NCBI GenBank assembly: GCA_002104905.1
Contig: MCFE01000127.1
Span: forward strand, 96,185-160,184
Reading direction: 5' to 3'
Source: Basidiobolus meristosporus CBS 931.73
Taxonomy: Eukaryota > Basidiobolomycota > Basidiobolomycetes > Basidiobolales > Basidiobolaceae
DNA: 64,000 nucleotides
Part shown: piece after piece, positions 783 through 64,000 of the stretch
How the letters are laid out: each line of letters starts with the position of its first letter
How positions within the stretch are numbered: the first letter of the stretch is position 1
Notes under the pieces: model-generated
What the model saw: only the letters and a program-made list of their open reading frames with translations
What the model was told of the DNA's origin: nothing
Database searches by the model: none
Program-made: the position numbers and the translations under genes

Positions 783-1908
783 TTATTGTTGTTTACATTC
801 AGGAGCTTGTTGGTTAGCAGGAGCTGAGGAGTATTCTTCCTCTTCATCGTCATCATCATCGTCATCATCATCATCTTGCTCGTCGCTGTTATCTTCGTAG
901 TAGTCGTCTTCATCATCATAGTCGTCCAACCCAAATCCTTCATACTCGAGAGCCTTACCGGTGAACCAGTCAATGGCATGAGGGATGAGCTTTTCCTTAA
1001 ACTCTTCACCAAGTTCATAATCAGCCTCCAATTGCTCGCCGATATCGTTCTCCTCGTTCTCATCGAGATCCTCGGCATCTGGGACCTCGATAGGGGTGAA
1101 GAAGTTGAAGAAAGTCTCAGCGGGGACGGTTCTCTTGACTACTCTGGTCTTGTTGGTGCTCTTGTGTCTTTGCTTCTTGGTCTCAATGGTAACAGAGAGA
1201 TCCTTGCCCTCCTTCCATTCAATGACCGTGCCCTCGGCATGGTCGAAGACTAGATCGCCACTGGTAGCAGATTGTTGATAGTAGTAAGTCTTGGTCAACA
1301 CAGTGTTGTTGAAATACTCATTCTCCGAGAAATCAAACTCCAATTTGAATCCAGGGTTCTCTTCGAGGTAAGCCAGACGAATGTTGGTAAGGCTCTTGAG
1401 AGCCTCCTGATCTTGCTCAGTGATCATGTCGGCGATTTGAGCATGGTTCTTCATGGCAGACAACCAGAACTCGGGAACACCAGCGGTGCTTTGAGCTTCA
1501 TCGATGATCTCAGCTTCGCTGGATGATTCCTTGATCTCCTCAGTAAACTCTTCATCAATTTTCTTGCCAGCCTCAACTTGATCGTCTGAAGGCTCGGTTT
1601 TGCCGACAACGATGTCGTTTCTCTTTTCATAAAGGGGAGTGTAAAGACCAAGGTATTTCTTTTCCAACTCAAGGATATCTTTGTGGAACTGTGCTTCCAA
1701 TTCGGAGTGTTCAGCCTAAGGAAAGTGTGTTATGATGGAATCCAACCGGCTGCAGTAAACTAGGGAAACTCACTTGAAGTTGCTTCAAAGCAAAGATACG
1801 ACGCTTGACTGGCTCGGGGAGAGACTTAATGTAGCCTGATTGTTGGCCAACGAGTGAGCCAAGACTACCTTGGAGTTTGGCAATCAATTCAGGGCTGATC
1901 TGATCCAT
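783..1908 (-). CDS. NAP1: Nucleosome assembly protein NAP1 (histone H2A-H2B chaperone)
   Basis: Two exons, 1908-1774 and 1715-783, joined across a 58-nt GT-AG intron, encode 355 residues, the usual NAP1 size. The N-terminal part has the hallmark LPEPVKRRIFALKQLQ helix, followed by EAQFHKDILELEKKYLGLY and PLYEKRNDIVVG. The central NAP fold is followed by a strongly acidic tail with runs of Asp and Glu that in this family binds basic histones. The protein shuttles H2A-H2B and assists chromatin assembly and septin/mitotic functions in fungi. It ends CKQQ, a CAAX-type box like that of animal NAP1L1, so farnesylation is plausible. The acidic tail is encoded by imperfect trinucleotide repeats near 850-900. 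The gene runs the same way as TRZ1 upstream. Confidence 0.96.
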
Positions 1909-2484
1909 GACTTTAGAAATAAAGAGAAGTGGCGGTTCACGTTTGTATCGAACGGATCATGCTATTAATAATTTTCAAAGCAGGGGAGAGAATTGTTTTG
2001 TTGAGGGAAGGGGATACAAAAAAAAAAGTATCCACGATTAAAATGATTTCGTACAATCAGCAACACATACTGTCAGTTGGAAATTTCATTGACCAATGTC
2101 TATCTAAATCGTGATTTATACTTGTTGATTTGGTTCCTAATACTGACGGGATGACCAGATGCTTATATGCTGGGACTGTAAGATTACTGCGTCTTGAAAA
2201 GGGTGATTTCTAGAGCCCACCATTCACTCAACTAATATTGAGCATTCTGATGGCTCTACTAGCGACTTCTGCCAGTGGCATTTCCATGCGATACAAAGGC
2301 AATTATGTATAATTATATCAGTAAACTTTGCAGGCTGAGTCATCTCTTGATATCTGATTTTTATTTTATCCCAATTAATATCTTTAGAACTATATTTTTG
2401 ATTATTGCTGAATTTATTTACCAAGGTTCAACCGGGGAAGCTCTTGGGTTCTGCATCACGATTGACGCCATCATTGGCGGTAAA
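1909..2484. other. Intergenic: NAP1 promoter side and TRZ1 3' flank
   Basis: These 576 bases hold the NAP1 upstream region and the TRZ1 3' flank, both genes being read leftwards. The stretch is AT-rich, with an A-run at 2021-2029. I see no convincing open frame, RNA gene or repeat. Confidence 0.6.
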
Positions 2485-37928: not shown

Positions 37929-40510
37929 TCAAGCGCCTACTGAATTGTTGGCCTGGTTGTGGGCTTGTAATTGATTGATCCTCTCTTGAATATCTTGACG
38001 TTCAACACTGAGATTGGCGTATTGTTTCTGCAGTTCAGTCTCGCGATTAGTCAAATGATGGACTTGGCTTTGGATGCTGTGAATGCGCTGTGGGATGGCC
38101 ACTTTCTCCAACATATTCAAGTTCCTGAATGAGGAAAGCTCAATCGTCACCTGGTCGAGCTCTTCATAAGCTGCTGTGAGTTTCTCGACAAGAGCTTCCG
38201 ACCGAGCTTGATATCCACCGAGCACAACATTCAATTTCTTCTCTACCTTGGCCGCCCGAGCTGCTTCCTTGCCCATCTTTTTGCGGTTCTTTTCCAATAT
38301 ATCACTCATACTGGCAATCCTCTCTCCTTCCCCAATATCCTCGGATTTGACGTACTTCTCCAATGAGGGTGCATAAATATAGGATCCGCTTGTTCTCTCC
38401 CAAATTTCCGCGAATTCTTCCATGTTGATAGCACTGTTCTCATCACCACCGAGTGCCTTCTCGGATTCTTGTTTGATCAAGACTCGAGCCTCGTGCAACT
38501 CATCATCAGTGAACTGTTCGAGATTAACCTTCTTGGAAGTTTGCCCGTTGCCAAAAGGAAACTTGGCCTGATCATGAGCAAGAACAGACACTAGCTCTTC
38601 ACTGATCATATGTTGAGCTTGGCGCAGTAACTCGTCCTGTTCATCCTGGGCTGCACCCAAAATTCCCTCAGCATTGATGGACATTGGGCGCGGAAGCTGT
38701 CGCTGAATAACCTGGGTTCTACGTCTGAGCTCGGCTTGCTTTTGAGCTAAACGCAGTTCCTTTCTACGTTTGTCGGCATCTGCGGCATCCTCCTCCATGG
38801 CAGATGGAGCCAAGTCACCAGAAACGTCGTCTGTTGCCTCTTCAGGGAGACGAATCTCGAATTCATTTTTGGGTGCAGGTAGGTTGGCCAAACCAAGAGA
38901 AACTTGTTTTCTAACGGAAGCTAGGCGCATCTTTTCAGCCCTCGGAGTACCCTCGACAAAACCACCATCGCCATCAGCATTGATGCTTAACTCATCTCTG
39001 AATGGTGTTCTCAAGGGAGTGGCACCTGCTTGATTACCACGGCCTGGTGTAGTAAAGCCAGTACTAGCTCCACTTGCGCTACGAAGTGGAGTCAAGAGAG
39101 GATTGGGCGTTTGAGCTGGAGCATGTCGAGGTGTAGCTCCTTGGAACCCTGTTCCAGTTGCGCTTTGGATAAGTGGAGTGTTTTCCCCGCCCAAAAGAGG
39201 TGTTTGTGCAGATGATAAGGCACGCAAATTACGCGCCTCCATCATAACTGTGTCAGCAGCAGCTGGCGTTCTAGGGGTTCTTGCTGCCAGTCCAGATTGA
39301 ATAGTGGAGTAGGTTCCCAGCAAGCCCCTTGTAGCATCAACGCTACTTTCCTCAGCTATGCTCCTAGCGTTCTCGCCAGCAATACCGATCTTAACAATCT
39401 CCTCTAATTCGCTCTCTCCTACCTGAGGGGATGGTAGAAGAAGCTTTTTACGTCGTGTCAGCTGTTGTGCCTCATTAAGCTTGTTTAGCTGCATTGAGCT
39501 ACCCGGGACAAAGGAAGTTTCACCATTCTCCTTCCTTTGCTTCTGCTTTTTAGCGTCCTTTTTTCTTTCCTCGGCTTCAACTTCTGCCCTTCTTTTACCT
39601 TCTAACTTCTGGAGATCTAGACGTGAGCCCATGCGTTGAACAGGGCGTTCCTTCTCTTCAGTTGTGTCATAAAAACCTGGTGCCGGCTTTTTCTCCAGAG
39701 GAATATCTGCGTTGTAATCCATACCCTTTGTTTTCTTCTTAACTCGAATATCAATTCCGGCTGCTTTGAGTTCTCTACGCTTCTGGAGTGCTGCAAGACG
39801 TCTGGCCTCTTCTAACTGCTTTTCACGAGCCTTACGCTTAGCCTTCTTTCCCTGTGTGTTAGCAAGACGCGCTCTTGCTTCTGACAGCATTTCTTTCTCA
39901 TCTTCATCCATATCTACTGGATCCGGGCGAGCGGCCTTTGTTTCCGGATCTGGATCAATTTCTCCAGGTCTAAGTCTTCTAACATCGTCAGCGCTAGGAC
40001 CCGTATCACCAACACCGGTAAGCCCCAAATCAGCACCTTCCTTTTGCTCAGCCTCGTCGAGAAGTTGTTGGTATCTCTCTAGGCACTGAGAAGCCGTACG
40101 TCCAACAATGGGAGCGATTGTTCTCCATTGTGTGGGCATGAGTTTAGCAAGGTGGAGCAATTTCTCATCTTCTTCCTTGGACCATTCCGTTTTCTTGATG
40201 CTAGGATCAAGCCATTCATACCAACGAGCTTTGCACTGCTTTGGGGATTTACGCACTAACAGAGAAGAAATACGAGCCCATTGGTTTTTGCCATACTTCA
40301 TGACGGCAGCTTTGAGGATTTCATCCTTTAATAAATATCGCGTTAGTACGATTGAACATAGATCGCTGGTTAAACATTCGTCAACAACTCACCTCAGTAT
40401 TTTTCCAAACACCACCTGCGAGGAGGAGGAAAATAAAAGGTTAATCTTAAATCCAAGGGCATGCTGCTTACTGAGATCCTGGAAGGTATACCTTTAATCA
40501 ATACTCTCAT
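37929..40510 (-). CDS. CDC5: Cdc5/Cef1 spliceosome protein of the Prp19 complex
   Basis: Three exons (40510-40492, 40415-40393, 40325-37929) sum to 2439 nt, 812 residues. The first two exons are only 19 and 23 nt and rebuild the invariant N-terminus MRVLIKGGVWKNTEDEILK. Two Myb/SANT repeats follow (WARISSLLVRKSPKQCKARW, then EWSKEEDEKLLHL with WRTIAPIVGRTASQC). The middle has the long charged helix of the family and the TPR-motif region with repeated R/K-T-P dipeptides (GENTPLIQ, TPLRTPFRDELSIN). The C-terminus is coiled coil. Cdc5 is a core member of the Prp19/NTC complex that activates the spliceosome in the nucleus. It is divergent from CWC22. Confidence 0.97.
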
Positions 40511-52394: not shown

Positions 52395-53834
52395 AGTGCT
52401 CGTTCACAAATATCTTGGCGATATGGAACATTACTTCGCTTGTCTGGAGTTGTGTTCTACATGCCCACCGCATACTATCTTTATTCATAGAAAATAATGC
52501 TTCTCATACCCCCCTAAAAATGCTGATGATGTGGTCATCTCATCATATTTCCTGCAACACAAACCAACAATTTGCCATCTCACATTCAATATTCTCTATA
52601 TATCTATATATCTATGTATCATTAAACAAACATTCGCATCTCTCTAAGAGCTAGCCCGAGACAGTTGGACAGCGGCATATGCGCCAAACTAGGAGCGTGG
52701 TCATTGAGCATTTTGCAAGTTTGCCTTACGATGTGCCTCCACAAATGTTGAGAAGTTCTATCATATTAATATCAACAGCCAAAAACAAACGGTTGATACC
52801 ACACGTTGCCCAAGACATCAAATATCGATCGGAATTCTCGCTTGTGCATAGGCGACAAGAAATGACATCCTGATGTATTCACCGTGCCTGGCACACCGTA
52901 ATTTTTTATCAACTTGGCCTATTATCATAATAACTACGAGAAAGTTGCTGAATCAGCTATTCACTACCCAACTGCTTGTTTGCTCACTGAAGTATATATC
53001 TGGTACTATTGATTGCAAACATTGGTGCTATTCCTAAGCTCTTCACGTCGGCCAGAAATAACTTTATTGCCTATAGTGGATTCTTATCTATATATTCAAA
53101 TCTCCAGTTTGTGAGCAATTACTGCGAAACAATTTCAGCTGATAGCTGGCTTCAGCAGGGTTTCATAGCCTAGGTTATCAGTTGATACTTAGGCTCCACC
53201 GCGGAAGGTAGATCATGCACTGTACTGGGGGAACTTGCAATTCAAAGAAAATAAACAATAGCGGAATCGGTGTTGCACTTGAAATCAAGATAATCTGCAC
53301 AGGTGGCCTACAATGGGACTATACCTGTGCACAGCTGTTGTGAAATAAAAGCCCTTGTCGTTTTGATGTTTTCAATGAGTGATACTATTGTTCTAATATG
53401 CTGGTCTTGTGAAGTAACAAATCACTTTGATGAAGCATCACAAGCCATCAATTCGATATATACCATTGCAGTACTTGTCGTAAGAGCTCTGGATATATTA
53501 TTAGTGATGTGGGGATCAAGTAGATTATGTGGCTTTCATTCAATGCTTTATTCCAAGTAAAAGCATCATCTATACTTTCACATGGTCTTGCCCATTGAAA
53601 CATATTTAATATGCTTGAGAGGGCCCTATGAGTATTTGTGCAAAGTTAGGGAGCCTTTGGATAGCCCTGAGATTCTTCATAACCCAAGAACCTGATATAT
53701 TGGAAAAATTAAAACCCTAACCAAAAATTGGGCAAGATTCTGAGACTCATAGGATAGGACTTCAATGACTAAGAGATGGAATACACAGCTGTGAACTTGA
53801 AGATCACATCAATATTGAGCTTCAGTACCTAGTG
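52395..53834. other. Transition from gene region to subtelomere
   Basis: About 1.4 kb, AT-rich, without a recognised gene; the frame at 53303-53560 has no family features. One inverted telomere-like unit, CCCTAA at 53715-53720, lies near the distal end. It may mark the start of subtelomeric sequence or be chance. Confidence 0.45.
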
Positions 53835-53928
53835 GCTAGGGGGATGACAGTCACCAGGTGGTGAAATCTTTGAGGGGGGGAGACATCACCATTGGGTATA
53901 ATCTTTGTTGTTAATCATTGTGAAAATA
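53835..53928 (-). repeat. Two degenerate 3' ends of the telomeric retroelements
   Basis: Two short, worn copies of the shared element tail follow each other. The first (53835-53872) reads CTAGGGGGATGACAG, then the hairpin TCACC-AGGT-GGTGA at 53851-53864 and AAATCTTT. The second (53873-53911) has a G-run, AGACATCACC, a decayed right arm and ATAATCTTT. They lie on the centromere side of all better copies, so they are the oldest layer. Confidence 0.7.
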
Positions 53929-54548
53929 AGGGAGAGAAAGTCACCAAGGTAGGTGAAATCTTTATTTGATTTCAGACAAGTCTAACTACAAATAAAGAAG
54001 CCAGCTGGGAATAGAAGAATTCCCAAAGTAAACACTAAGTTAAATAAGAATAAATCTAAGCTAAAGTTAAAGCAGTATCCCAGAGTACACTGGAGTTCAG
54101 GTTCACAGGGGAGTGAAGTATATAAGCTTGAGAGATATAATAATCTTTTAAGAAGTGGGTAATAGCAGGTGAAGGGGAGTTTTTGATAAGTGAAGTGAAT
54201 CTTGAGAGCAGAGATTCCTCTAATGAGAAGGTCTTGTAAACCAGAGAATCAGAAAACTCTTTAAAGGAATGGTCAGTAGGTTCCCAGAAAAACTGGTCAG
54301 AGACATTTTGAGAGAATTGCAGAGCAATACTTTTGTCAAGTACTACCTCCAGAGTGTGATTGTTGATAAATCTCATGTTAACAATCTTGGATAAATTGTA
54401 ACCTTGTTGCTTGAGATACATCCTATGCTCAGATATAGGAATAAACTCCACATTGGCAAAGTAGCAGACAGCCCAGTCAGTAGCAGGAGGCAAATTGGAA
54501 GTGGCAGGAAACTTTCTTTTAGTCTTGGGAGGAGCAGCAGGATGTCTT
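53929..54548 (-). mobile_element. Family B retroelement copy B1 (ORF1 only, 5'-truncated)
   Basis: The element's 3' end is at the left (AAGGGAGAGAAAG followed by hairpin TCACC-AAGGTA-GGTGA at 53941-53956 and TTTATT, the reverse of AATAAA). It then follows copy B3 base for base with scattered differences. It stops at GATGTCTT (54541-54548), where a TTAGGG unit takes over, sharing the last TT. Only the C-terminal two-thirds of ORF1 remains. Confidence 0.85.
54056..54548 (-). pseudogene. ORF1 (gag-like) remnant of B1
   Basis: About 164 codons of the ORF1 protein, from the RHPAAPPKTKRKFPATS region to the common end LWDTALTLA and a TAG stop. It lacks the coiled-coil N-terminus because the copy is cut by telomere repeats. 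The remaining frame is open, and the apparent upstream residues are translated telomere sequence and element A tail. Confidence 0.85.
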
Positions 54549-54558
54549 AGGGTTAGGG
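54547..54558 (+). repeat. Internal telomere repeats between B1 and A1
   Basis: Two exact TTAGGG units join the truncated 5' end of B1 to the 3' end of A1. They have the same orientation as the chromosome-end repeat. Confidence 0.9.
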
Positions 54559-54957
54559 GGGAGACAGTCACCAACAGGTGAAATCTTTATTTCAGTTGAA
54601 ACAAAGAAGCCAGCGCTACTGTTGTAGCTTTGATACAAGAGTGTGTAGCTGAGAGGAATTTGTAGGTAAGTTAATAAGAAGTGATGATAGTTCTTCAGTG
54701 CTCAAGACACTGTTCAGTGGGAAGGGGGGTAGCAAGAGAGGTAAGAATGACTTGTGAACAACATTAATGAGGGGAATGTGATAAGGATTGATATTCATCA
54801 TAAAGGGAGTGTGCTGCTGCAGATATTGCTGCCAAAGGTCTGTCAAGTACTTCAGGTAGGCCAGCTTGGGTTTTTCTGACTGCAGAATATAATGAGCAAA
54901 CTTCTTGACTTCAGGATCTCCAAGTATAGTTCTCCAGCAGGAGCCAGGTGTAGTGTG
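54559..54957 (-). mobile_element. Family A retroelement copy A1 (3' end only)
   Basis: The 3' end begins with a G-run and AGACAG, then hairpin TCACC-AACA-GGTGA (54568-54581) and TTTATT. It holds the last ~115 codons of ORF2 (open from 54616 upstream on the minus strand), ending SKLQQ then TAG. It stops inside ORF2 near 54957, where copy B2 begins with only a G-run and no whole TTAGGG unit. Confidence 0.85.
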
Positions 54958-55166
54958 GGGGAGGGAAAGTCACCAAGGTAGGTGAAATCTTTATTTGATT
55001 TTGGACAAGTCTAACTACAAATAAAGAAGCCAACTGAGAATAGAAGATTCCCAAAGTAAACACTAAGTTGAATATGAATAAATCTAAGCTAAAGTTAAAG
55101 CAGTATCCCAGAGTACACTGGAGTTCAGGTTCATGGGGGAGTGAAGTAGATAAGCTTGAGAGATAT
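54958..55166 (-). mobile_element. Family B retroelement copy B2 (interrupted by an LTR element)
   Basis: The tail GGGAGGGAAAG and hairpin TCACC-AAGGTA-GGTGA (54970-54985) are followed by about 200 bp matching B3. The match stops at AGATAT (55161-55166), where B1 and B3 continue AATAATC but here an LTR begins. The rest of B2 is absent. Confidence 0.85.
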
Positions 55167-55613
55167 TGTTGTGCATCAACATTTAAAACTTAGCCAATTT
55201 TACTCCGTTTGAAAATCTAGTACCCTAACTGATTTTCCCTAACCCAAACATAACAAATCCCAGTTACAGTTTATTTTATCCCACCTCAGAATCTATTTTT
55301 AGCTATCACACCTGATCTATTTTCAAATGGTCATTACGTTATCAACCTATCTGCCAAGCCTTCCCAGGTGATTAGTCATCTGAGATCTATCCAACCACTG
55401 TGCAGTTGCCAAGACATCAGTTGATTGATGATGTAATTTTCATTTATCTTATGCACCTATGAACACCCAAATTGATTTCAATCAATCCAGTCCCTTGGTG
55501 CTGACTAATTCAACTTGATCAGAAAAGTATAAATAAAGTCTACTGAACCTTTTGGTTTAGTGTGTGTCTCAACGAAATTAAGATTCTGTCTCAGCAAAAA
55601 TAAGAATCCAACA
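55167..55613 (+). repeat. 5' long terminal repeat of the LTR retrotransposon
   Basis: About 447 bp bounded by TGTTG and CAACA, a perfect 5-bp terminal inverted repeat of the usual TG...CA type. A TATA box TATAAATAAA lies at 55528-55537, leaving a short R-U5 part. The right border is inferred from the inverted repeat, as the second LTR is missing. I see no standard initiator-tRNA primer site directly after it. Confidence 0.6.
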
Positions 55614-56295
55614 ATTCCGTTCTAGTTTCTATCCAAGCCTAGTATATCTAGCACTCCAAAGAACACCAAGCCTAGCCTGCCTAGCAAACAAATATCATTG
55701 CCTTTATAGCCAACCCAGCTATATCCAAGACCAATATTAGATCAGAATCTTTCTGCTAATATTTCCGCCCCTCTCTGACAATTCTAAGATTCTGCACTTA
55801 ATTGTCTCTTTGGTTCAGTTAAACCATTCAAGAGTTTTATTACACTTTCTCTTGGATACAACATTTTTTTTGTTGAATTCCATTACATTCAGCCAATTAG
55901 AAGATGTCCTCAGCAGCAAGCAATCCAAACCTTTCCATGTTGGAAGAAGCCAGAAGAAATCAGGAAGAACTTACTGAACAGCTTGAAAACATCATGCTTG
56001 AAAGAAATACCATGATGATTGAGCACTCAAAGCTTGCCAAAACAAGATCTGATAATCACCGTAGAGATGAACTCCTTGAAGTTATATCCGGTTACCAAGA
56101 TGAAATTGGAATAATTAAGGAAGCACTGGAGATTATTGCCATAGTAATTGACAGCATTGAAAATCCACCAAGCCTTGCTCTGCATCAGTCACCAAGAAGT
56201 CATGCCTTTGAATCCTCCAGATCTACATCTCCTTCTAGACCTGCCCCGGTGGTTGTCCCAAGATCCTTGCCTGTTTATGCTGAAGGCACCAATGC
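55167..56295 (+). mobile_element. LTR retrotransposon fragment (5' LTR, leader, start of gag)
   Basis: The segment begins with TGTTG and carries an LTR-like unit, a pyrimidine-rich leader and a gag-like frame. It is inserted in element B2 and oriented opposite to the A/B elements. It is cut off within gag at 56295, where two TTAGGG units and copy A2 start. No pol region or 3' LTR is present in the window. The superfamily is not assignable. Confidence 0.72.
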
Positions 56296-56299
56296 TTAG
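55904..56299 (+). CDS. Truncated gag-like protein whose stop codon comes from a telomere repeat
   Basis: The frame starts at ATG 55904 and gives 131 residues. The N-terminus is a charged coiled coil (MLEEARRNQEELTEQLENIM), like the start of many gag proteins, followed by a Ser/Pro-rich stretch. The natural frame is broken at base 56295: the stop TAG (56297-56299) is part of the TTAGGG unit at 56296-56301. No zinc knuckle or protease remains. Confidence 0.65.
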   Translation: MSSAASNPNLSMLEEARRNQEELTEQLENIMLERNTMMIEHSKLAKTRSDNHRRDELLEVISGYQDEIGIIKEALEIIAIVIDSIENPPSLALHQSPRSHAFESSRSTSPSRPAPVVVPRSLPVYAEGTNA

Positions 56300-56307
56300 G
56301 GTTAGGG
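56296..56307 (+). repeat. Internal telomere repeats between the LTR element and A2
   Basis: Two exact TTAGGG units follow the broken gag gene directly. They mark a former chromosome end that was healed with telomere repeats before A2 was added. Confidence 0.9.
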
Positions 56308-56317
56308 GGGGAGACAG

Positions 56318-56331
56318 TCACCAACAGGTGA
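56318..56331 (-). promoter_or_regulatory. 3'-terminal hairpin of A2
   Basis: TCACC-AACA-GGTGA: a 5-bp stem with a 4-nt loop, some 10 nt from the element's 3' border. The stem is the same in A1, A3, the B copies and fragment C1, while the loop varies. It probably marks the RNA tail for the reverse transcriptase. Confidence 0.65.
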
Positions 56332-56365
56332 AATCTTTATTTCAGCTGAAACAAAGAAGCCAGCG

Positions 56366-59134
56366 CTACTGTTGTAGCTTTGATACAAGAGTGTGTAGCT
56401 GAGGGGAATTTGTAGGTAAGTTAATAAGAAGTGATGATAGTTCTTCAGTGCTCAAGACACTGTTCAGTGGGAAGGGGGGTAGCAAGAGAGGTAAGAATGA
56501 CTTGTGAACAACATTAATGAGGGGAATGTGATAAGGATTGATATTCATCATAAAGGGAGTGTGCTGCCGCAGATATTGCTGCCAAAGGTCTGTCAAGTAC
56601 TTCAGGTAGGCCAGCTTGGGTTTTTCTGACTGCAGAATATAGTGAGCAAACTTCTTGACTTCAGGATCTCCAAGTATAGTTCTCCAGCAGGAGTCAGGTG
56701 TTGTGTGGTGTGTTCTTTTCCAGGCCTTAATCAGTGGGTTGTTGCAGTTGTGAAGTCTGAGGTATAATCTGGTTCTAAGGTAGAGAAGTCTGATCTTATA
56801 GGGCATAAACCCAAAAGCACCAAGAATAGCATGTCTGTAGGGGCATTCAGGCAAATGAGGCACCAAGGAGGTAATGCACCATACTGCAAACTTGTCAAGC
56901 TTAGTGCAGTCTCTAGAAGTAAGAGAGAGAAGTGGTAAGCCAAATTCCAGGACAGGGAAGACAAACTGCTTGAGTAGAAGGAGGCAGCTGGGAGCTGAAG
57001 TTGTAGGAGGAGTAACAGCCAGTAGCTTTTGGAGTGCCTGTCTTGCCAGGATAATTCTCTTCTTCAGGTGTGCTCCAGAGTCTAGTCCAGTAGGAAGGAA
57101 AGGAAAGCCAAGATATGTAGCAGAAACCTGAGCAGGTAGAGTGGAGTTCTCCAAGTTGATGGGAGAGCCCAAAGGTACTGTCTTTGCAATGGAAAGCTGG
57201 AGATTATTCTTCTGCAGATACTGGTGGATGGTCTGGGAGTCTTGTTGCACATTGGAGGAGGATATTCTGATGTCATCAGCAAAGAGAGTAACCAGGCAGT
57301 CAGCTGAGAGTCTTGGGAAATCATTCAGAAAGATGGCAAACAGTATAGGACCAAGCACAGAGCCTTGAACCACTCCATTAGGAACTGGGAACACAGCTGA
57401 TTGCTCACTTAGGTGCAGAATTCTTGCTTGTGGATCCAGAAACAGAGACCTGACAAGGAGGGTGAGAGAGGTACTGGAGAAGCATTGCAACTTGGACCAA
57501 AGCAGATTTCTGTCAACTGAATCAAAGGCCTTAGTAATATCAAACAGAACAGAGGGATACTTGCACTGGAGAGAGTGATCTTGGCTAAGTATGACTGCAT
57601 ATTCCAAGGAGAGGCCAGGAACAAAGCCAAACTGTGCAGGATGAAACTTGGGAGAGTCAGAGTAGAGCTCCTGAGCAAGCAGAAGCTCAAACACCTTTCT
57701 GCAGGTGGGCAGCAGAGATATTGGCCTGTAGGAGCTAGGATCCAGGTGCTTTCCTTTACCCTTGTACAGTGGCAGAACATTTGCAAAGGACCATTCCTCA
57801 GGAGTAGAAAGCTGGGCTGAGCATTGCTGAAACAGTGGAAGCAGAAGTGCAGACATGGCCTTGGTACTAGTCTTCAGAAGCTCATAGGATATTGTGTCCA
57901 CACCTGGAGCAGTAGAGTTGGGAAGCCTCTTGAGCACATTATGGATTCTCCTTTGATCAAGTGCAAGTGGGATGGGCAGAGTCTTGAAGTCAGGATGAAA
58001 GCCAGGAGTTGAGTACTGCTTTGTAGAGAAGAAGATGTTAGCCAGCTGTTCTGTTGAAGGTAACTTCCTGGAAGAGGGCCTCATTGCCCTGTAGAGTCTT
58101 GATACTGTTCTTGTTATAGAGTTGGAAGATTGCAGAGGCAAGGAACTCATAATATGATCCCAGAGCTGAGTATGCAGAGTGTGGTGAATTGCCTTGGAGT
58201 GGTGTATTGCTGTCAGGAGGAGTTTCTCTGTTTTTGGGTTAGGGAAGCTCAGGTAGCTTTGTTGCAGGGCTGAAACAATGGATTCCCATTTTCTTGAGGT
58301 AACAGCAGTAGTCTTGCATGGCAGTGAGAGGGAGGCAGACACCAGAATCAGATGCTTCACAAAGAGCCAGGCAAAGTTGAGATCATCTGGCAGAGAAAGT
58401 AGCAAACTGGCAAGCTTCAAGTAGTTCCCAAAGTCTTTCTTCTGATTCTTGGTAGCTTTGTGGGTGAGCACAGTAAGTTTTGGCAGCTTCTTCTTCACAA
58501 CTGGTTGCATAGAAAGGGACCAGGCTGGGTGGTCAGAGGCTCTCAAGGATCCTAGCTCAGCTCCAGAGAATTGCTTAACTTCATTCACAAAGTAGAGGGC
58601 AGCAGCAGAAGGGCAGATCCAGTCAACACATCTTTTCTCAGATTGAGCACCTAGTGCTAGCAGGTGGCTTTCTCTCAGGAAGTTCAGTAGGAATGTAGAC
58701 CTTGGCTTCATTCTTGCAGTCAGAGTAGTCTTGTTCTCAGGATGGGGAATGTTGAGATCTCCAAGCAAGATAACAGGTGTTGATATAGATTGTTGGTATT
58801 GCTGAACCTTCTGGCATATAACTTGCACTTCCTGAAGGGCTAGACTTGGAGGCAGATAGCAGAGCACCAGACTGATAGTTGGCAACTGGAGAGCAGCACA
58901 GTAAGGGGAGTAAAGAGGAACACAGAGCTGAGGAGTATTGATGGTAGAAGAGATGAAGCAGATAGAGGAGGTATTCTTTGTTCTAGGAGTAGAAAAGCAA
59001 TATAGATTAGTCAAAAGTATAGAGGGTAGCTGGACATCAATCAAACACAGGAGGGAAAATCTTGAAAGAAGTCTCTCTAGAGTTGGTCTTGATGGCTGTA
59101 TGCTGTTGCAGTTAAGCAACAGAACTTCAGGTAG
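56366..59134 (-). CDS. ORF2 of A2: endonuclease-like plus reverse transcriptase protein
   Basis: About 922 residues if counted from the codon after the ORF1 UGA stop. Numbering from the first TTG codon (59119): an APE-type endonuclease region (LNCNS at 2-6, CYLPPS at 87-92, GDLN at 120-123, CVDW at 164-167, SDH at 195-197), then the reverse transcriptase (LYKGKGKHLDPSSYRPISLL near 451-470, FDITKAFDSVDR near 526-537, GVVQGSVLGPILF near 582-594, FADD at 613-616), then a long C-terminal region without a visible zinc knuckle. The catalytic Glu expected in the LLLQE motif is not seen (LIDVQLP). No AUG occurs until residue 137, so ORF2 is probably made by readthrough from ORF1. Family placement within LINE clades (Tad/CR1/Jockey-like) is open. 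Confidence 0.92.
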   Translation of the reverse strand, partial: LPEVLLLNCNSIQPSRPTLERLLSRFSLLCLIDVQLPSILLTNLYCFSTPRTKNTSSICFISSTINTPQLCVPLYSPYCAALQLPTISLVLCYLPPSLALQEVQVICQKVQQYQQSISTPVILLGDLNIPHPENKTTLTARMKPRSTFLLNFLRESHLLALGAQSEKRCVDWICPSAAALYFVNEVKQFSGAELGSLRASDHPAWSLSMQPVVKKKLPKLTVLTHKATKNQKKDFGNYLKLASLLLSLPDDLNFAWLFVKHLILVSASLSLPCKTTAVTSRKWESIVSALQQSYLSFPNPKTEKLLLTAIHHSKAIHHTLHTQLWDHIMSSLPLQSSNSITRTVSRLYRAMRPSSRKLPSTEQLANIFFSTKQYSTPGFHPDFKTLPIPLALDQRRIHNVLKRLPNSTAPGVDTISYELLKTSTKAMSALLLPLFQQCSAQLSTPEEWSFANVLPLYKGKGKHLDPSSYRPISLLPTCRKVFELLLAQELYSDSPKFHPAQFGFVPGLSLEYAVILSQDHSLQCKYPSVLFDITKAFDSVDRNLLWSKLQCFSSTSLTLLVRSLFLDPQARILHLSEQSAVFPVPNGVVQGSVLGPILFAIFLNDFPRLSADCLVTLFADDIRISSSNVQQDSQTIHQYLQKNNLQLSIAKTVPLGSPINLENSTLPAQVSATYLGFPFLPTGLDSGAHLKKRIILARQALQKLLAVTPPTTSAPSCLLLLKQFVFPVLEFGLPLLSLTSRDCTKLDKFAVWCITSLVPHLPECPYRHAILGAFGFMPYKIRLLYLRTRLYLRLHNCNNPLIKAWKRTHHTTPDSCWRTILGDPEVKKFAHYILQSEKPKLAYLKYLTDLWQQYLRQHTPFMMNINPYHIPLINVVHKSFLPLLLPPFPLNSVLSTEELSSLLINLPTNSPQLHTLVSKLQQ

Positions 59135-59509
59135 TCAGGCAGAGGTTGTAGCTTCTTCAGAGGCAGCATTAACAATGTGACCTGCAGAGTCCCAGAGCTC
59201 TTCAAATGGTGCATCACTTAAGTCAGCAAGGAGGGAAATGGCATGATTCTTGAGGAAGTATGCCACATCATAGGAGGGGGCTTGTCTCTTGATGGCAGCA
59301 AAGAAAGACAGAATGGCAACATGGGCTGGAGGCTTGTTGAACAGTAGAGAGTCAGAGGATTCAGATTCTTCAGGCACTATCTTGAAGTCAGTTTTCAGCC
59401 AGTTAAGGTTCTTCTCCACAAAGGCAACAAATGGGTCAGCAATGTTTTGGTCTAGGATAACCTCCAGAATCTTCCTTTTCTCCAGGCAGGTTGACAATTC
59501 TTGAGAGCT
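59135..59509 (-). pseudogene. ORF1 C-terminal part of A2, with frame damage
   Basis: Ends with ATTSA and the UGA at 59135-59137. It is homologous to the end of the B-family ORF1 protein (EVILDQNIADPF against EVVLDKSIAKEF; VAYFLKNHAISLL against VTHFLKDYYISQA). Compared with A3, this copy lacks one C in the CTTCCTTTTC run near 59471 and one C near 59487, shifting the frame at its 5' end. The N-terminal part is missing by truncation. Confidence 0.8.
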
Positions 59510-59512
59510 GGG

Positions 59513-59524
59513 TTAGGGTTAGGG
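59513..59524 (+). repeat. Internal telomere repeats between A2 and B3
   Basis: Two TTAGGG units, preceded by GGG, separate the truncated 5' end of A2 from the 3' end of B3. Confidence 0.9.
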
Positions 59525-59647
59525 GAGGGAAAGTCACCAAGGTAGGTGAAATCTTTATTTGATTGCAGACAAGTCTAACTACAAATAAAGAAGCCAGCTG
59601 GGAATAGAAGATTCCCAAAGTAAACACTAAGTTGAATATGAATAAAT

Positions 59648-60376
59648 CTAAGCTAAAGTTAAGGCAGTATCCCAGAGTACACTGGAGTTCAGGTTCATGG
59701 GGGAGTGAAGTAGATAAGCTTGAGAGATATAATAATCTTTGAGGAAGTGGGTAACAGCAGGTGAAGGGGAGTTTTTGATAAGTGAAGTGAATCTTGAGAG
59801 CAGAGATTCCTCTAATGAGAAGGTCTTGTAAACTGGAGAATCAGGAAACTCTTTAAAGGCATGGTCAGTAGGTTCCCAGTAAAACTTGTCAGAGACATTT
59901 TGAGAGAACTCTTTAGCAATACTTTTGTCAAGTACTACCTCCAGAGTGTGATTGTTGATATATCTCATGTTAACAATCTTGGATAAATTGTAACCTTGTT
60001 GCTTGAGATACATCCTATGCTCAGATATAGGAATGAACTCCACATTGGCAAAGTAGCAGACAGCCCAGTCAGTAGCAGGAGGCAAATCAGAAGTAGCAGG
60101 AAACTTTCTTTTAGTCTTGGGAGGAGCAGCAGGATGTCTTGAGGAAGCAGGAACAGGCTTTTTGACAGCTTCAGAGTAGGAAGAGTGAGCAGGAGCAGAT
60201 GATTCTTGGGGAGTCTTGTTGACAGGAACAGCTGGCAGAGAGACAATAGATTCTTGCAGTTCAGAGAAGGCAGAAAACAGCTTTTGAACTTGTTTCTTGA
60301 GTAAAGCATTTTCAGCTTCAACAAGTGCAAGCCTTTCCTCAAGAAAGGAAATCTGAAGGGAATGGAGTGAAGGCAT
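59648..60376 (-). CDS. ORF1 (gag-like RNA-binding) protein of B3
   Basis: From the ATG at 60376 the frame gives 242 residues; it stays open further upstream without an ATG. The N-terminus is a leucine-heptad coiled coil (SFLEERLALVEAENALLKKQ), then a Ser/Pro-rich linker with PPKTKRKFPATS basic residues. A C-terminal domain of about 120 residues follows (WAVCYFANVEFIPISEHRMY, NLSKIVNMRYINNHTLEVVL, ending LWDTALTLA). The coiled coil plus globular nucleic-acid-binding layout matches LINE ORF1 proteins, which trimerise and chaperone the RNA. An RRM-like fold for the C-terminal domain is a guess. The domain is homologous to the ORF1 end kept in A2 and A3. Confidence 0.82.
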   Translation of the reverse strand: MPSLHSLQISFLEERLALVEAENALLKKQVQKLFSAFSELQESIVSLPAVPVNKTPQESSAPAHSSYSEAVKKPVPASSRHPAAPPKTKRKFPATSDLPPATDWAVCYFANVEFIPISEHRMYLKQQGYNLSKIVNMRYINNHTLEVVLDKSIAKEFSQNVSDKFYWEPTDHAFKEFPDSPVYKTFSLEESLLSRFTSLIKNSPSPAVTHFLKDYYISQAYLLHSPMNLNSSVLWDTALTLA

Positions 60377-60469
60377 AAGAAATAAGAAGAAGAGGGTAAG
60401 ATGGGGTGGGTGGGAGGGAAAATTAGCAGGGAGAAGAGAAGGAAGGAGCAAAAATTCCAGAAGTCAGAA

Positions 60470-60475
60470 TTTATA
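60470..60475 (-). promoter_or_regulatory. TATA-like box in the B3 leader
   Basis: CTATAAATT on the minus strand, about 95 nt upstream of the ORF1 ATG. It could drive element transcription from near the 5' end. Assignment is by sequence only. Confidence 0.35.
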
Positions 60476-60530
60476 GATGGATGGACAAGGGTAGATGGAT
60501 GGATTATTCCTGGGTTAGGAAAATTAGCAG

Positions 60531-60542
60531 TAGGGTTAGGGG
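60531..60542 (+). repeat. Internal telomere repeats between B3 and fragment C1
   Basis: TAGGGTTAGGGG: one full TTAGGG unit and a partial one, between the 5' side of B3 and the short fragment C1. Confidence 0.8.
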
Positions 60543-60597
60543 AGGAAAGTCACCAAGTGGTGAAATCTTTATTTACTTATGACAAGTATCTAAAGAA
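60543..60597 (-). mobile_element. Very short element fragment C1 (3' tail only, about 55 bp)
   Basis: AGGAAAG, hairpin TCACC-AAGT-GGTGA (60550-60563), AAATCTTTATTT, then GACAAGTATCTAAAGAA and a new telomere repeat. The end resembles the B tail (GACAAGTCTAAC), but the hairpin loop differs from both A and B, so it is a B-related variant. It was cut after about 55 nt, an extreme 5' truncation. Confidence 0.75.
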
Positions 60598-60600
60598 GGG

Positions 60601-60606
60601 TTAGGG
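60601..60606 (+). repeat. Internal telomere repeat between C1 and A3
   Basis: One TTAGGG unit preceded by GGG joins C1 to the tail of A3. Confidence 0.85.
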
Positions 60607-60615
60607 GGGAGACAG

Positions 60616-60629
60616 TCACCAACAGGTGA
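60616..60629 (-). promoter_or_regulatory. 3'-terminal hairpin of A3
   Basis: TCACC-AACA-GGTGA, identical in A1, A2 and A3, placed between the AATAAA signal and the C-run that meets the telomere unit. Confidence 0.65.
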
Positions 60630-60663
60630 AATCTTTATTTCAGTTGAAACAAAGAAGCCAGCG

Positions 60664-63432
60664 CTACTGTTGTAGCTTTGATACAAGAGTGTGTAGCTGA
60701 GGGGAATTTGTAGGTAAGTTAATAAGAAGTGATGATAGTTCTTCAGTGCTCAAGACACTGTTCAGTGGGAAGGGGGGTAGCAAGAGAGGTAAGAATGACT
60801 TGTGAACAACATTAATGAGGGGAATGTGATAAGGATTGATATTCATCATAAAGGGAGTGTGCTGCTGCAGATATTGCTGCCAAAGGTCTGTCAAGTACTT
60901 CAGGTAGGCCAGCTTGGGTTTTTCTGACTGCAGAATAAATTCTGCAAACTTCTTGACTTCAGGATCTCCAAGTATAGTTCTCCAGCAGGAGCCAGGTGTT
61001 GTGTGGTGTGTTCTCTTCCAGGCCTTAATCAGTGGGTTGTTGCAGTGGTGAAGTCTGAGATATAATCTGGTTCTAAGGTAGAGAAGTCTGATCTTATAGG
61101 GCATAAACCCAAAAGCACCAAGAATAGCATGTCTGTAGGGGCATTCTGGCAAATGAGGCACCAAGGAGGTAATGCACCATACTGCAAACTTGTCAAGCTT
61201 AGTGCAGTCTCTAGAAGTAAGAGAGAGAAGTGGTAAGCCAAATTCCAGTACAGGGAAGACAAACTGCTTGAGTAGAAGAAGGCAGCTGGGAGCTGAAGTT
61301 GTAGGAGGAGTAACAGCCAGTAGCTTGTGGAGTGCCTGTCTTGCCAGGATAATTCTCTTCTTCAGGTGTGCTCCAGAGTCTAGTCCAGTAGGAAGGAAAG
61401 GAAAGCCAAGATATGTAGCAGAAACCTGAGCAGGTAGAGTGGAGTTCTCTAAGGTGATGGGAGAGCCCAAAGGTACTGTCTTTGCAATGGAAAGCTGGAG
61501 ATTATTCTTCTGCAGATACTGGTGGATGGTCTGGGAGTCTTGTTGCACATTGGAGGAGGATATTCTGATGTCATCAGCAAAGAGAGTAACCAGGCAGTCA
61601 GCTGAGAGTCTTGGGAAATCATTCAGGAAGATGGCAAACAGTATAGGACCAAGCACAGAGCCTTGAACCACTCCATTAGGAACTGAGAACACAGCTGATT
61701 GCTCACTTGGGTGCAGAATTCTTGCTTGTGGATCCAGAAACAGAGACCTGACAAGGAGGGTGAGAGAGGTACTGGAGAAGCATTGCAACTTGGACCAAAG
61801 CAGATTTCTGTCAACTGAATCAAAGGCCTTAGTAATATCAAACAGAACTGAGGGATACTTGCACTGGAGAGAGTGATCTTGGCTAAGTATGACTGCATAT
61901 TCCAAGGAGAGGCCAGGAACAAAGCCAAACTGTGCAGGATGAAACTTGAGGGAGTCAGAGTAGAGCTCCTGAGCAAGCAGAAGCTCAAACACCTTTCTGC
62001 AGGTGGGCAGCAGAGATATTGGCCTGTAGGAGCTAGGATCCAGGTGCTTTCCTTTACCCTTGTACAGTGGCAGAACATTTGCAAAGGACCATTCCTCAGG
62101 AGTAGAAAGCTGGGCTGAGCATTGCTGAAACAGTGGAAGCAGAAGTGCAGACATGGCCTTGGTACTAGTCTTCAGAAGCTCATAGGAGATTGTGTCCACA
62201 CCTGGAGCAGTAGAGTTGGGAAGCCTCTTGAGCACATTATGGATTCTCCTTTGATCAAGTGCAAGTGGGATGGGCAGAGTCTGGAAGTCAGGATGAAAGC
62301 CAGGAGTTGAGTACTGCTTTGTAGAGAAGAAGATGTTAGCCAGCTGTTCTGTTGAAGGTAACTTCCTGGAAGAGGGCCTCATTGCCCTGTAGAGTCTTGA
62401 TACTGTTCTTGTTATAGAGTTGGAAGATTGCAGAGGCAAGGAACTCATAATATGATCCCAGAGCTGAGTATGCAGAGTGTGGTGAATTGCCTTGGAGTGG
62501 TGTATTGCTGTCAGGAGGAGTTTCTCTGTTTTTGGGTTAGGGAAACTCAGGTAGCTTTGTTGCAGGGCTGAAACAATGGATTCCCATTTTCTTGAGGTAA
62601 CAGCAGTAGTCTTGCATGGCAGTGAGAGGGAGGCAGACACCAGAATCAGATGCTTCACAAAGAGCCAGGCATAGTTGAGATCATCTGGCAGAGAAAGTAG
62701 CAAACTGGCAAGCTTCAAGTAGTTCCCAAAGTCTTTCTTCTGATTCTTGGTAGCTTTGTGGGTGAGCACAGTAAGTTTTGGCAGCTTCTTCTTCACAACT
62801 GGTTGCATAGAAAGGGACCAGGCTGGGTGGTCAGAGGCTCTCAAGGATCCTAGCTCAGCTCCAGAGAATTGCTTAACTTCATCCACAAAGTAGAGGGCAG
62901 CAGCAGAAGGGCAGATCCAGTTAACACATCTTTTCTCAGATTGAGCACCTAGTGCTAGCAGATGGCTTTCTCTCAGGAAGTTCAGTAGGAATGTAGACCT
63001 TGGCTTCATTCTTGCAGTCAGAGTAGTCTTGTTCTCAGGATGGGGAATGTTGAGATCTCCAAGCAAGATAATAGGTGTTGATATAGATTGCTGGTATTGC
63101 TGAACTTTCTGGCATATAACTTGCACTTCCTGAAGGGCAAGACTTGGAGGCAGATAGCAGAGCACCAGACTGATAGTTGGCAACTGGAGAGCAGCACAGT
63201 AAGGGGAGTAAAGAGGAACACAGAGCTGAGGAGTATTGATGGTAGAAGAGATGAAGCAGATAGAGGAGGTATTCTTTGTTCTAGGAGTAGAAAAGCAATA
63301 TAGATTAGTCAAAAGTATAGAGGGTAGCTGAACATCAATCAAACACAGGAGGGAAAATCTTGAAAGAAGTCTCTCTAGAGTTGGTCTTGATGGCTGTATG
63401 CTGTTGCAGTTAAGCAACAGAACTTCAGGTAG
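60664..63432 (-). CDS. ORF2 of A3: endonuclease-like plus reverse transcriptase protein
   Basis: Same length as in A2, with only scattered amino-acid changes and no stop or frameshift. All reverse transcriptase motifs are present, including SYRPISLL, FDITKAFDSVD, GVVQGSVLGP and FADD. In the endonuclease part GDLN and SDH are kept. The Glu of the QE motif is absent as in A2, and the motif CVDW of A2 is CVNW here, losing the Asp usually found at that site. The lack of an AUG before residue 137 and the UGA-CUA junction are the same as in A2. Intact reverse transcriptase in both copies suggests recent activity. Confidence 0.92.
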   Translation of the reverse strand, partial: LPEVLLLNCNSIQPSRPTLERLLSRFSLLCLIDVQLPSILLTNLYCFSTPRTKNTSSICFISSTINTPQLCVPLYSPYCAALQLPTISLVLCYLPPSLALQEVQVICQKVQQYQQSISTPIILLGDLNIPHPENKTTLTARMKPRSTFLLNFLRESHLLALGAQSEKRCVNWICPSAAALYFVDEVKQFSGAELGSLRASDHPAWSLSMQPVVKKKLPKLTVLTHKATKNQKKDFGNYLKLASLLLSLPDDLNYAWLFVKHLILVSASLSLPCKTTAVTSRKWESIVSALQQSYLSFPNPKTEKLLLTAIHHSKAIHHTLHTQLWDHIMSSLPLQSSNSITRTVSRLYRAMRPSSRKLPSTEQLANIFFSTKQYSTPGFHPDFQTLPIPLALDQRRIHNVLKRLPNSTAPGVDTISYELLKTSTKAMSALLLPLFQQCSAQLSTPEEWSFANVLPLYKGKGKHLDPSSYRPISLLPTCRKVFELLLAQELYSDSLKFHPAQFGFVPGLSLEYAVILSQDHSLQCKYPSVLFDITKAFDSVDRNLLWSKLQCFSSTSLTLLVRSLFLDPQARILHPSEQSAVFSVPNGVVQGSVLGPILFAIFLNDFPRLSADCLVTLFADDIRISSSNVQQDSQTIHQYLQKNNLQLSIAKTVPLGSPITLENSTLPAQVSATYLGFPFLPTGLDSGAHLKKRIILARQALHKLLAVTPPTTSAPSCLLLLKQFVFPVLEFGLPLLSLTSRDCTKLDKFAVWCITSLVPHLPECPYRHAILGAFGFMPYKIRLLYLRTRLYLRLHHCNNPLIKAWKRTHHTTPGSCWRTILGDPEVKKFAEFILQSEKPKLAYLKYLTDLWQQYLQQHTPFMMNINPYHIPLINVVHKSFLPLLLPPFPLNSVLSTEELSSLLINLPTNSPQLHTLVSKLQQ

Positions 63433-63864
63433 TCAGGCAGAGGTTGTAGCTTCTTCAGAGGCAGCATTGACAATGTGACCTGCAGAGTCCCAGAGCTCTT
63501 CAAATGGTGCATCACTTAAGTCAGCAAGGAGGGAAATGGCATGGTTCTTGAGGAAGTATGCCACATCATAGGAGGGGGCTTGTCTCTTGATGGCAGCAAA
63601 GAAAGACAGAATGGCAACATGGGCTGGAGGCTTGTTGAACAGTAGAGAGTCAGAGGATTCAGATTCTTCAGGCACTATCTTGAAGTCAGTTTTCAGCCAG
63701 TTAAGGTTCTTCTCCACAAAGGCAACAAATGGGTCAGCAATGTTTTGGTCTAGGATAACCTCCAGAATCTTCCCTTTTCTCCAGGCCAGGTTGACAATTC
63801 TTGAGAGCTGAATATTGCATGCCTTGAGTGCTTCTGATGTGGAATGGGTCAGGATGCTTCAGTA
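63433..63864 (-). CDS. ORF1 C-terminal part of A3 (5' end missing)
   Basis: The frame is open on the minus strand from close to the element's 5' edge to the UGA at 63433-63435, about 140 codons. Its first part, IQLSRIVNLAWRKGKILEVI, lines up with NLSKIVNMRYINNHTLEVVL of the B3 ORF1 protein. This shows that family A once carried the same kind of ORF1, and that A3, not A2, has the original frame. The N-terminal coiled coil is lost by truncation at the telomere. Confidence 0.8.
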
Positions 63865-64000
63865 TTAGGGTTAGGGTTAGGTTAGGGTTAGGGTTAGGGT
63901 TAGGGTTAGGGTTAGGTTAGGGTTAGGGTTAGGGTTAGGGTTAGGGTTAGGGTTAGGGTTAGGGTTAGGGTTAGGGTTAGGGTTAGGGTTAGGGTTAGGG
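63865..64000 (+). repeat. Terminal telomere repeat (TTAGGG)n
   Basis: 136 bases made of 21 TTAGGG units and two five-base TTAGG variants, running to the last base of the window. The G-rich strand reads 5' to 3' toward the right, so this is the right-hand chromosome end or very near it. Confidence 0.98.

What the first reader, a model, noticed from the sequence alone, without database searches (positions are those of the whole stretch)
53835..64000. Layered subtelomere of telomere-attached non-LTR retrotransposons, all with 3' ends toward the centromere
Seven element copies or fragments (B1, A1, B2, A2, B3, C1, A3), plus two worn tails, lie in one orientation. In most cases the 3' end of the element is joined to TTAGGG units on its centromere side, and the truncated 5' end is followed by new TTAGGG units on its telomere side. 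There is no poly(A) and no obvious target-site duplication. This is the layout expected if the 3'-OH of the G-rich chromosome end primes reverse transcription of the element RNA and telomerase later caps the product. It resembles Drosophila HeT-A/TART in polarity, but with TTAGGG repeats retained. Targeted insertion at a nick inside the repeat (as for SART/TRAS) followed by end loss is the main alternative.
Basis: partly seen in the sequence, partly recalled or inferred. Interest (0 to 1): 0.92.

Follow-up and report, generated by a model that had tools for sequence, protein, structure and literature searches.

The report
Chromosome-end retrotransposon layers in Basidiobolus
The chromosome ends of this fungus carry layers of one-way-facing mobile elements that appear to be copied directly onto exposed chromosome ends and then sealed by ordinary telomere repeats.

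Summary
The window is the right end of a Basidiobolus meristosporus CBS 931.73 contig; 53.8-64.0 kb is a one-way stack of non-LTR elements ending in TTAGGG. Four tail-sharing families were found: A (LINE, ORF1-UGA-ORF2), B and D (ORF1 only), and C, a tRNA-type SINE (here a 66-bp piece).

Genome-wide the tail hits 1441 forward and 128 reverse (LTR control 193/133). Of the 100 listed tails, the 40 on long contigs all lie within about 22 kb of an end and face inward. One inverted block is an exception.

The TTAGGG tract at the 3' border is short: 111 of 116 borders have at most 12 nt counted strictly, 94 of 116 allowing imperfect units (longest mostly under 36 nt). Terminal arrays have 136-243 nt. 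This disfavours insertion at random inside a full telomere and favours priming by an exposed chromosome 3' end. Whether the short tract is copied from the element RNA, made by telomerase, or left by an eroded telomere is open. A telomerase domain is encoded. I judge it a new variant (AP-type LINE plus SINE) of a known kind (MoTeR, FoTeR, Athena, HeT-A).

The parts
53834..53871 (-). worn 3' tail (stem-loop tail of the A/B/C kind), innermost
   Evidence: 84-91% to A and C tails over 32-38 nt; listed as a tail without TTAGGG border
53873..53911 (-). second worn tail
   Evidence: read by eye (gagacATCACC...ATAATCTTT); no BLAST hit of its own
53927..54548 (-). B1, 5'-truncated B element
   Evidence: 95.3% to B3 over 622 nt
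54547..54558 (+). TTAGGGTTAGGG at the B1/A1 border
   Evidence: 2-nt overlap with the B sequence
54549..54957 (-). A1, 5'-truncated A element
   Evidence: 98.5% to A3 over 410 nt
54958..55166 (-). B2, 3' part of a B element joined directly to the truncated A1 without TTAG
   Evidence: 97.1% to B3 over 209 nt; junction
55167..56295 (+). LTR and start of an LTR retrotransposon inserted in B2 and cut off on the telomere side
   Evidence: both orientations in other arrays; 193/133 copies of its first 20 bases genome-wide
56296..56307 (+). TTAGGGTTAGGG joining the broken LTR element to A2
56298..59510 (-). A2, A element truncated inside ORF1; ORF2 922 aa open
   Evidence: 98.8% to A3 over 3215 nt; ORF 56366-59134
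59513..59524 (+). TTAGGGTTAGGG at the A2/B3 border
59515..60535 (-). B3, near-complete B element with ORF1-like reading frame
   Evidence: ORF 59648-60463
60531..60596 (-). C1, 66-nt 3' piece of the SINE C
   Evidence: matches the 3' ends of C copies in other contigs
60597..63864 (-). A3, A element truncated in ORF1
60664..63432 (-). A ORF2: AP-like endonuclease and reverse transcriptase, 922 aa
   Evidence: RVT_1 E=2.6e-25; Exo_endo_phos_2 20.8 bits, below its cut-off; fold matches LINE-1 ORF2p and APE1
63433..63435 (-). in-frame UGA (followed by CUA) between ORF1 and ORF2
   Evidence: TGA in 100 of 100 copies shown of 133 matched
63436..63858 (-). 3' part of A ORF1
   Evidence: 94% to the full ORF1 in L041
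63865..64000 (+). terminal TTAGGG array to the contig end
   Evidence: TRF score 258

Best explanation
A is a LINE with an AP-like endonuclease that lives at chromosome ends. An exposed chromosome 3' end (the G strand) that lacks a normal telomere, ending in a few telomere-like bases or a very short TTAGGG tract, pairs with the C-rich end beside the element RNA's 3' stem-loop tail. The reverse transcriptase then copies the element outward. Copying often stops early (5' truncation), and telomerase later caps the new end with about 23-40 TTAGGG units. If that cap is lost, the next element is added outside it, so layers build up. B, D (ORF1 only) and the SINE C carry the same 3' tail and presumably ride on A's ORF2. 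SHOWN: orientation, position at ends, shared tail, tract lengths, junction overlap, young intact copies, telomerase domain. INFERRED: end priming, trans-mobilisation, order of events, UGA read-through. OPEN: whether the short tract is copied from the element RNA, made by a brief telomerase action, or left from an eroded telomere.
For: Tail pattern 1441 forward / 128 reverse, read-backwards control 0. Of the 100 places listed, 40 lie on 11 contigs of 169-345 kb; all 40 are within 22.2 kb of an end with 3' end inward. The LTR element of the same arrays is dispersed, 193/133. C box-B pattern 11/243. Border tract of 116 distinct tails: no full adjoining TTAGGG 20, one unit 80, two 12, more 4. Strict in-phase length at most 12 nt in 111 of 116; with imperfect units allowed 94 of 116 at most 12, 106 at most 24. 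95 clusters after removing near-duplicates: 90 (strict) or 77 (tolerant) at most 12 nt. Nine finished arrays 136-243 nt. Overlap of at least 2 nt between truncated A and tract in 18 of 30 junctions against 19% simulated. 18 of 26 terminal caps examined sit directly on A/B/C/D (17 by script plus the window's A3). ORF2: the 49 best-scored of 1388 candidates are 98-100% identical, 46 without stops. UGA kept in 100 of 100 shown. TERT RNA-binding domain on C880 in two pieces over the cut-off, one with a TAG inside that may be an intron. GC skew on the telomeric G strand +0.18 to +0.40 in A-D against -0.07 to +0.05 in the rest of the window.
Against: ORF2 keeps an endonuclease fold; the position of the catalytic Glu (recalled) is Asp in A, P0001 and P0003, the only three of the six close sequences that cover it, so nicking is not excluded. 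About a fifth of the borders (22 of 116) have longer, often imperfect tracts of 13-35 nt (one scored 59 nt, probably spurious), which fits insertion near the base of a longer array as well. An inverted block of three tails lies at 56.3-61.0 kb of the 69.6-kb contig C726. Short interstitial tracts could be what survives: in Magnaporthe, tracts above 3 units break (PMC7367193 passages). Telomerase itself could give the same junction overlap. No RNA or activity data.
Confidence: 0.67

Rival explanations
1. SART/TRAS- or MoTeR-like target-primed insertion: the element's endonuclease nicks the telomeric repeat, the element goes in near the base of the array, and long interstitial tracts are lost, leaving mostly insertions with 0-2 units inside.
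For: Endonuclease fold present. MoTeR arrays have the same polarity, and stable ones have at most two units between elements (PMC7367193 passages). 22 of 116 borders have 13 nt or more when imperfect units are allowed.
Against: If insertion were random along arrays of 195 nt, 94 of 116 borders at or below 12 nt (tolerant count) has binomial probability 1e-91, and 4e-45 even for 60-nt arrays. 20 of 116 borders have no full adjoining unit, and B2 sits on a non-telomeric end. SART1 needs at least three repeats and leaves poly(A) (PMC7265360 passages). By reasoning, breakage at a long tract removes the distal element rather than shortening the tract.
Confidence: 0.23
2. The layers spread mainly by recombination or break-induced replication between chromosome ends, not by new reverse transcription.
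For: 116 borders collapse to 95 clusters, one of 18, all complete C ends. The C726 inverted block shows rearrangement.
Against: 95 different flanks at the borders; truncation points spread over A from 32 to 3223 of the reference; copied blocks would carry the same borders.
Confidence: 0.07
3. Assembly artefact (chimeric joins of telomeric reads).
For: A draft assembly of 1311 contigs (read type not known from a call); the C726 inversion may be a chimera.
Against: 1569 tails by pattern, those listed on long contigs all near ends; contig C424 (312,558 bp) carries both telomeres with inward-facing elements; the array in the window is continuous with host sequence.
Confidence: 0.02

Closest known systems
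MoTeR1/MoTeR2 of Magnaporthe (Pyricularia) oryzae (passages of PMC7367193 and PMC8381367)
   Same: Fungus with TTAGGG telomeres and telomerase; 5' ends toward the chromosome end; head-to-tail mixed arrays with TTAGGG between; a partner without RT shares an end; LTR elements invade the arrays.
   Different: MoTeR groups with the restriction-like-endonuclease CRE/SLACS elements (PMC12857005, section 18); here the endonuclease is AP-like and a SINE is present; tracts of three or more perfect units are rare here (4 of 116), while MoTeR tracts run from half a unit to more than 20.
FoTeR of Fusarium oxysporum (abstract and sections 3, 18, 19 of PMC12857005)
   Same: Only at chromosome ends; telomeric repeats on the 3' side; truncated copies keep them.
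   Different: 3-7 repeats on the 3' side and a REL endonuclease; here mostly 0-2 repeats and an AP-like endonuclease.
Athena Penelope-like elements of bdelloid rotifers (passages of PMC5537684)
   Different: Penelope-type RT without endonuclease; here a LINE RT with an endonuclease fold.
HeT-A/TART/TAHRE of Drosophila (passages of PMC5537684, PMC4700185, PMC7265360; oligo(A) joins recalled)
   Same: Polarity and end attachment (recalled in detail), strand bias, several partner elements.
   Different: Drosophila has no telomerase and no short repeats; here a TERT domain and TTAGGG are kept and no poly(A) is seen at the joins.
SART1/TRAS1 of Bombyx (passages of PMC7265360)
   Same: LINEs with an endonuclease domain, specific for telomeric repeats.
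   Different: SART1 inserts at a fixed place inside at least three repeats, with poly(A).
Zepp of Chlorella, GilM/GilT of Giardia (mentions in PMC10088271 and PMC5537684; originals not held)
   Same: Telomere-associated LINEs with telomerase repeats; Gil elements in one-way head-to-tail arrays.
   Different: Not compared in sequence here; recalled to have A-rich 3' ends.

Membership tests
APE-type LINE (non-LTR retrotransposon) | LINE reverse transcriptase | tested here: met
   RVT_1 2.6e-25; best fold match LINE-1 ORF2p, E 1.4e-25
APE-type LINE (non-LTR retrotransposon) | AP-like endonuclease with all catalytic residues (residues recalled) | tested here: inconclusive
   fold matches APE1; GDxN and SDH kept, Glu position is Asp; Pfam endonuclease models below cut-off
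APE-type LINE (non-LTR retrotransposon) | two ORFs, no LTRs, 5' truncation | tested here: met
tRNA-derived SINE (element C) | pol III A and B boxes at the 5' end (consensus recalled) | tested here: met
   TAGCCTTGTGG (one mismatch to the recalled A box) and GGTTCAAATCC in C copies; ARAGORN gave no tRNA and Rfam no relevant match in the loci scanned
tRNA-derived SINE (element C) | 3' end shared with a LINE | tested here: met
   stem-loop tail shared with A, B, D
tRNA-derived SINE (element C) | transcribed by RNA polymerase III | not testable with these tools
   no RNA data
MoTeR/FoTeR (CRE clade) | restriction-like endonuclease | tested here: not met
   N-terminal AP-like endonuclease; no restriction-like endonuclease model in Pfam at E <= 0.1
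MoTeR/FoTeR (CRE clade) | 5' ends toward the chromosome end, TTAGGG at the 3' border | tested here: met
SART/TRAS | poly(A) at the join and insertion within several repeats | tested here: not met
   no poly(A); 0-2 adjoining perfect units in 112 of 116
SART/TRAS | R1 clade | not tested
   no RT tree with named reference elements was built
Drosophila HeT-A/TART/TAHRE | replaces telomerase | tested here: not met
   TERT domain over the cut-off and long TTAGGG caps
Athena | Penelope-type, endonuclease-free RT | tested here: not met
   LINE-type RT with endonuclease fold
Athena | short telomeric stretch at the 3' end of end-attached copies | tested here: met

The most novel reading that the evidence does not exclude
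The element RNAs carry their own telomerase-like template: a 3' end of about two repeats (CCCUAACCCUAA) beside the stem-loop lets a LINE reverse transcriptase heal broken or uncapped chromosome ends by aligning a few bases, so that one LINE, two ORF1-only partners and a SINE form a self-contained second end-repair system working beside telomerase.
Probability: 0.25. Interest if true: 0.88.

Novelty: new variant of a known kind. Interest (0 to 1): 0.7.

Why it matters
It puts a LINE with an AP-like endonuclease, ORF1-only partners and a SINE at telomerase-kept chromosome ends in the fungal phylum Basidiobolomycota. The two fungal cases met in the papers seen (MoTeR, FoTeR) are of the CRE type. 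The many young junctions are a natural record of which DNA ends a LINE reverse transcriptase extends. That makes the link between LINE end-priming and telomerase testable with one RNA 3'-end map.

Tried and rejected
Telomerase-RNA origin of C: considered because of CCCTAACCC near its 5' end; Rfam gave no such match and the A/B boxes point to a tRNA-type SINE. Loss of the endonuclease: not supported, since the fold is there and the one key position seen to differ is Glu to Asp. Variant units as proof of an element-borne template: TTAGGGTAGGG stands beside 13 C-type and 8 A-type tails and TAGGG is 0 of 419 in cap units; this fits RNA-borne or RT-made changes but also age and sequencing indels, so it is not used as proof. 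A sharp 12-nt limit: on strict in-phase lengths (115 borders) a flat-then-cliff model beats a geometric one, logL -276.7 against -303.9, but when imperfect units are allowed 22 of 116 borders exceed 12 nt, so the limit is softer than I first wrote. Covariation of the tail stem was not tested, as the stem hardly varies among families; folding z-scores are -3.9 (A), -1.8 (B), -1.5 (C). Clade placement by tree was not done. Dropped rows: one A junction (window 54968, no TTAG tract) was left out of the overlap count of 30, whose values were copied by hand into; 3 of 29 loci had no terminal cap, and the script missed the window's own cap element because it started that cap at 63882; the cap loci L044-L063 came from a pattern that asks for a base other than G before the array; tails with less than 100 nt upstream were not counted; other tail variants, such as one in L033, are missed by the pattern.

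Full report
WHERE. The window is G000:C302:96185-160184 of an 89.0-Mb genome in 1311 contigs. A Cdc5 protein of the window matches Basidiobolus meristosporus CBS 931.73 at 100% on a 160,184-bp contig, so the window's last base is the contig end. The species belongs to the phylum Basidiobolomycota. A second Cdc5 at 90% identity in the same strain hints at a duplicated or hybrid genome.

OBSERVATION. Self-comparison confirms the copies B1, A1, B2, A2, B3, C1, A3 in one orientation, one worn tail by BLAST and one by eye, and the terminal TTAGGG array. Of the window's 8 tails found by pattern, 5 have a full TTAGGG on the centromere side. The stretch 55167-56295 is the LTR and start of an LTR retrotransposon on the + strand; a solo copy in L043 shows LTR ends TGTTG...CAACA and a 5-bp target duplication. 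In the window it is broken and joined to TTAGGGTTAGGG and A2. This gives an order of events: B2, LTR insertion, end loss, A2.

FAMILIES. A: the copy in L041 shows ORF1 (zinc-ribbon-like cysteines by eye; weak coiled-coil-like Pfam matches), an in-frame UGA CUA, and ORF2 of 922 aa with no early ATG. In 100 of 100 copies shown, of 133 matched, the codon is TGA; the pattern itself fixes the CTA that follows. UGA CUA is a read-through context tested in fungi (passages of PMC4207609); read-through here is inferred. ORF2 has RVT_1 and a sub-threshold AP-endonuclease match. The model (mean pLDDT 76.8) matches LINE-1 ORF2p best, and APE1 structures are also among the matches. The position of the catalytic Glu (recalled) is Asp in A, P0001 and P0003; P0002, P0004 and P0005 do not cover it. 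B and D encode an ORF1 relative only. C is about 520 bp with A- and B-box-like motifs. All four end in a CACC-loop-GGTG stem-loop followed by a C-run on the sense strand; AATAAA lies just upstream, but no poly(A) is found at the joins.

DISTRIBUTION. The tail pattern hits 1441 forward and 128 reverse. TTAGGG-array starts not preceded by G hit 119 forward and 5 reverse, so most telomeric contigs read left to right. Only the first 100 tails are listed. Of these, 40 are on 11 contigs of 169-345 kb; all 40 lie within 22.2 kb of an end and point inward. The other 60 are on contigs of 17.7-20 kb, where position says little. As a control, the LTR element's first 20 bases hit 193/133, with many places inside long contigs. 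The C box-B pattern hits 11/243. ORF2: 49 of 1388 candidates were scored; all 49 are 98-100% identical, 46 without stops, 47 on the minus strand. Of the two on the plus strand, C1257 starts 63 bp from the left contig end, which fits. C726 is a true exception: an inverted block with three tails at 56.3-61.0 kb abuts a normal array. C424 (312,558 bp) has both telomeres with inward-facing elements.

BORDERS. 116 distinct tails with at least 100 nt upstream were read: 20 without a full adjoining TTAGGG, 80 with one, 12 with two, 2 with three, 1 with four, 1 with five. Strict in-phase lengths are 0 (1), 4 (10), 5 (9), 6 (22), 7 (9), 8 (12), 9 (9), 10 (17), 11 (11), 12 (11), then 15, 22, 23, 28, 30 once each. 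When mismatches and gaps are allowed, 94 of 116 are at most 12 nt, 101 at most 18, 106 at most 24; the rest reach 35 nt, one scoring 59 nt and probably spurious. Collapsing near-duplicates leaves 95 clusters, of which 90 (strict) or 77 (tolerant, first member) are at most 12 nt. Genome-wide, the two-unit pattern gives 325 matches against 1569 tails; among its first 100 places 10 tails are listed twice because they have three units. Terminal arrays are far longer: 136 nt in the window and 140-243 nt in eight others read to the end. Random insertion into such arrays is rejected by the binomial (1e-91 for 94 of 116 at 195 nt; 4e-45 even at 60 nt). Where the flank is a truncated A, at least 2 nt can be read in both sequences in 18 of 30 junctions, against 19% for random breaks.

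MECHANISM. The simplest reading is end-primed reverse transcription from an exposed chromosome 3' end that has lost its telomere or nearly so. Three sources of the short tract remain. It may be copied from the 3' end of the element RNA. It may be a brief telomerase addition before the element lands. Or it may be the stump of an eroded cap. TAGGG variants beside tails (21 matches) and none in 419 cap units lean to the first but are not decisive, and the longer imperfect tracts in 22 of 116 borders fit the third better. Caps fall directly on A/B/C/D in 18 of 26 ends examined. A TERT RNA-binding domain is encoded in two pieces, one with an in-frame TAG that may be an intron.

FIT TO TELOMERES. 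On the strand that runs 5' to 3' toward the chromosome end, A-D have GC skew +0.18 to +0.40 while the rest of the window is near zero. GGGTTAGG is embedded in A (twice inside, once at the border), once per 101-bp unit of B's 5' repeat, and once in C (none in D); shuffles give 0.12 or less, and CCTAACC is absent from that strand. A's 5' region carries TTAGGGTTAGGG in the three copies seen (L026, L041, L058).

PRIOR WORK. Among the papers listed by searches I saw none on telomeric retrotransposons of Basidiobolus or on a telomere-restricted SINE. The listings are capped and the library holds open-licence papers only, so this is no proof of absence. The layout and polarity are those of MoTeR and FoTeR, and the short repeat stretch is that described for Athena. 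The enzyme type and the SINE partner differ.

Noticed in passing
window 55167-56295: LTR and start of an LTR retrotransposon whose first 20 bases occur 326 times in the genome in both orientations.
   Followed up: partly
L126 (contig C726:55001-63000), 1351-6110: Inverted block of A, C, LTR piece and A facing the wrong way, next to copia-like pol sequence (by eye); a rearrangement or an assembly chimera.
   Followed up: partly
L058 216-430, L026 1290-1490: The 5' region of A holds TTAGGGTTAGGG and, on the sense strand, TACTAAC (in L026) plus a pyrimidine run and TAGG that looks like the 3' end of an intron.
   Followed up: no
L057 end (contig C249:12682): A terminal TTAGGG array starts inside a tRNA-like sequence (by eye).
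   Followed up: no
window 37932-40301: The host has a second Cdc5 at 90% identity, hinting at a duplicated or hybrid genome.
   Followed up: no
L042 8259-8573: The B element carries about three tandem copies of a 101-bp 5' unit, each with GGGTTAGG.
   Followed up: partly
L056/L128 (contig C224:55266): An internal stretch of four TTAGGG units in a 261-kb contig; its surroundings were seen only about 1 kb to the left and 2 kb to the right.
   Followed up: partly
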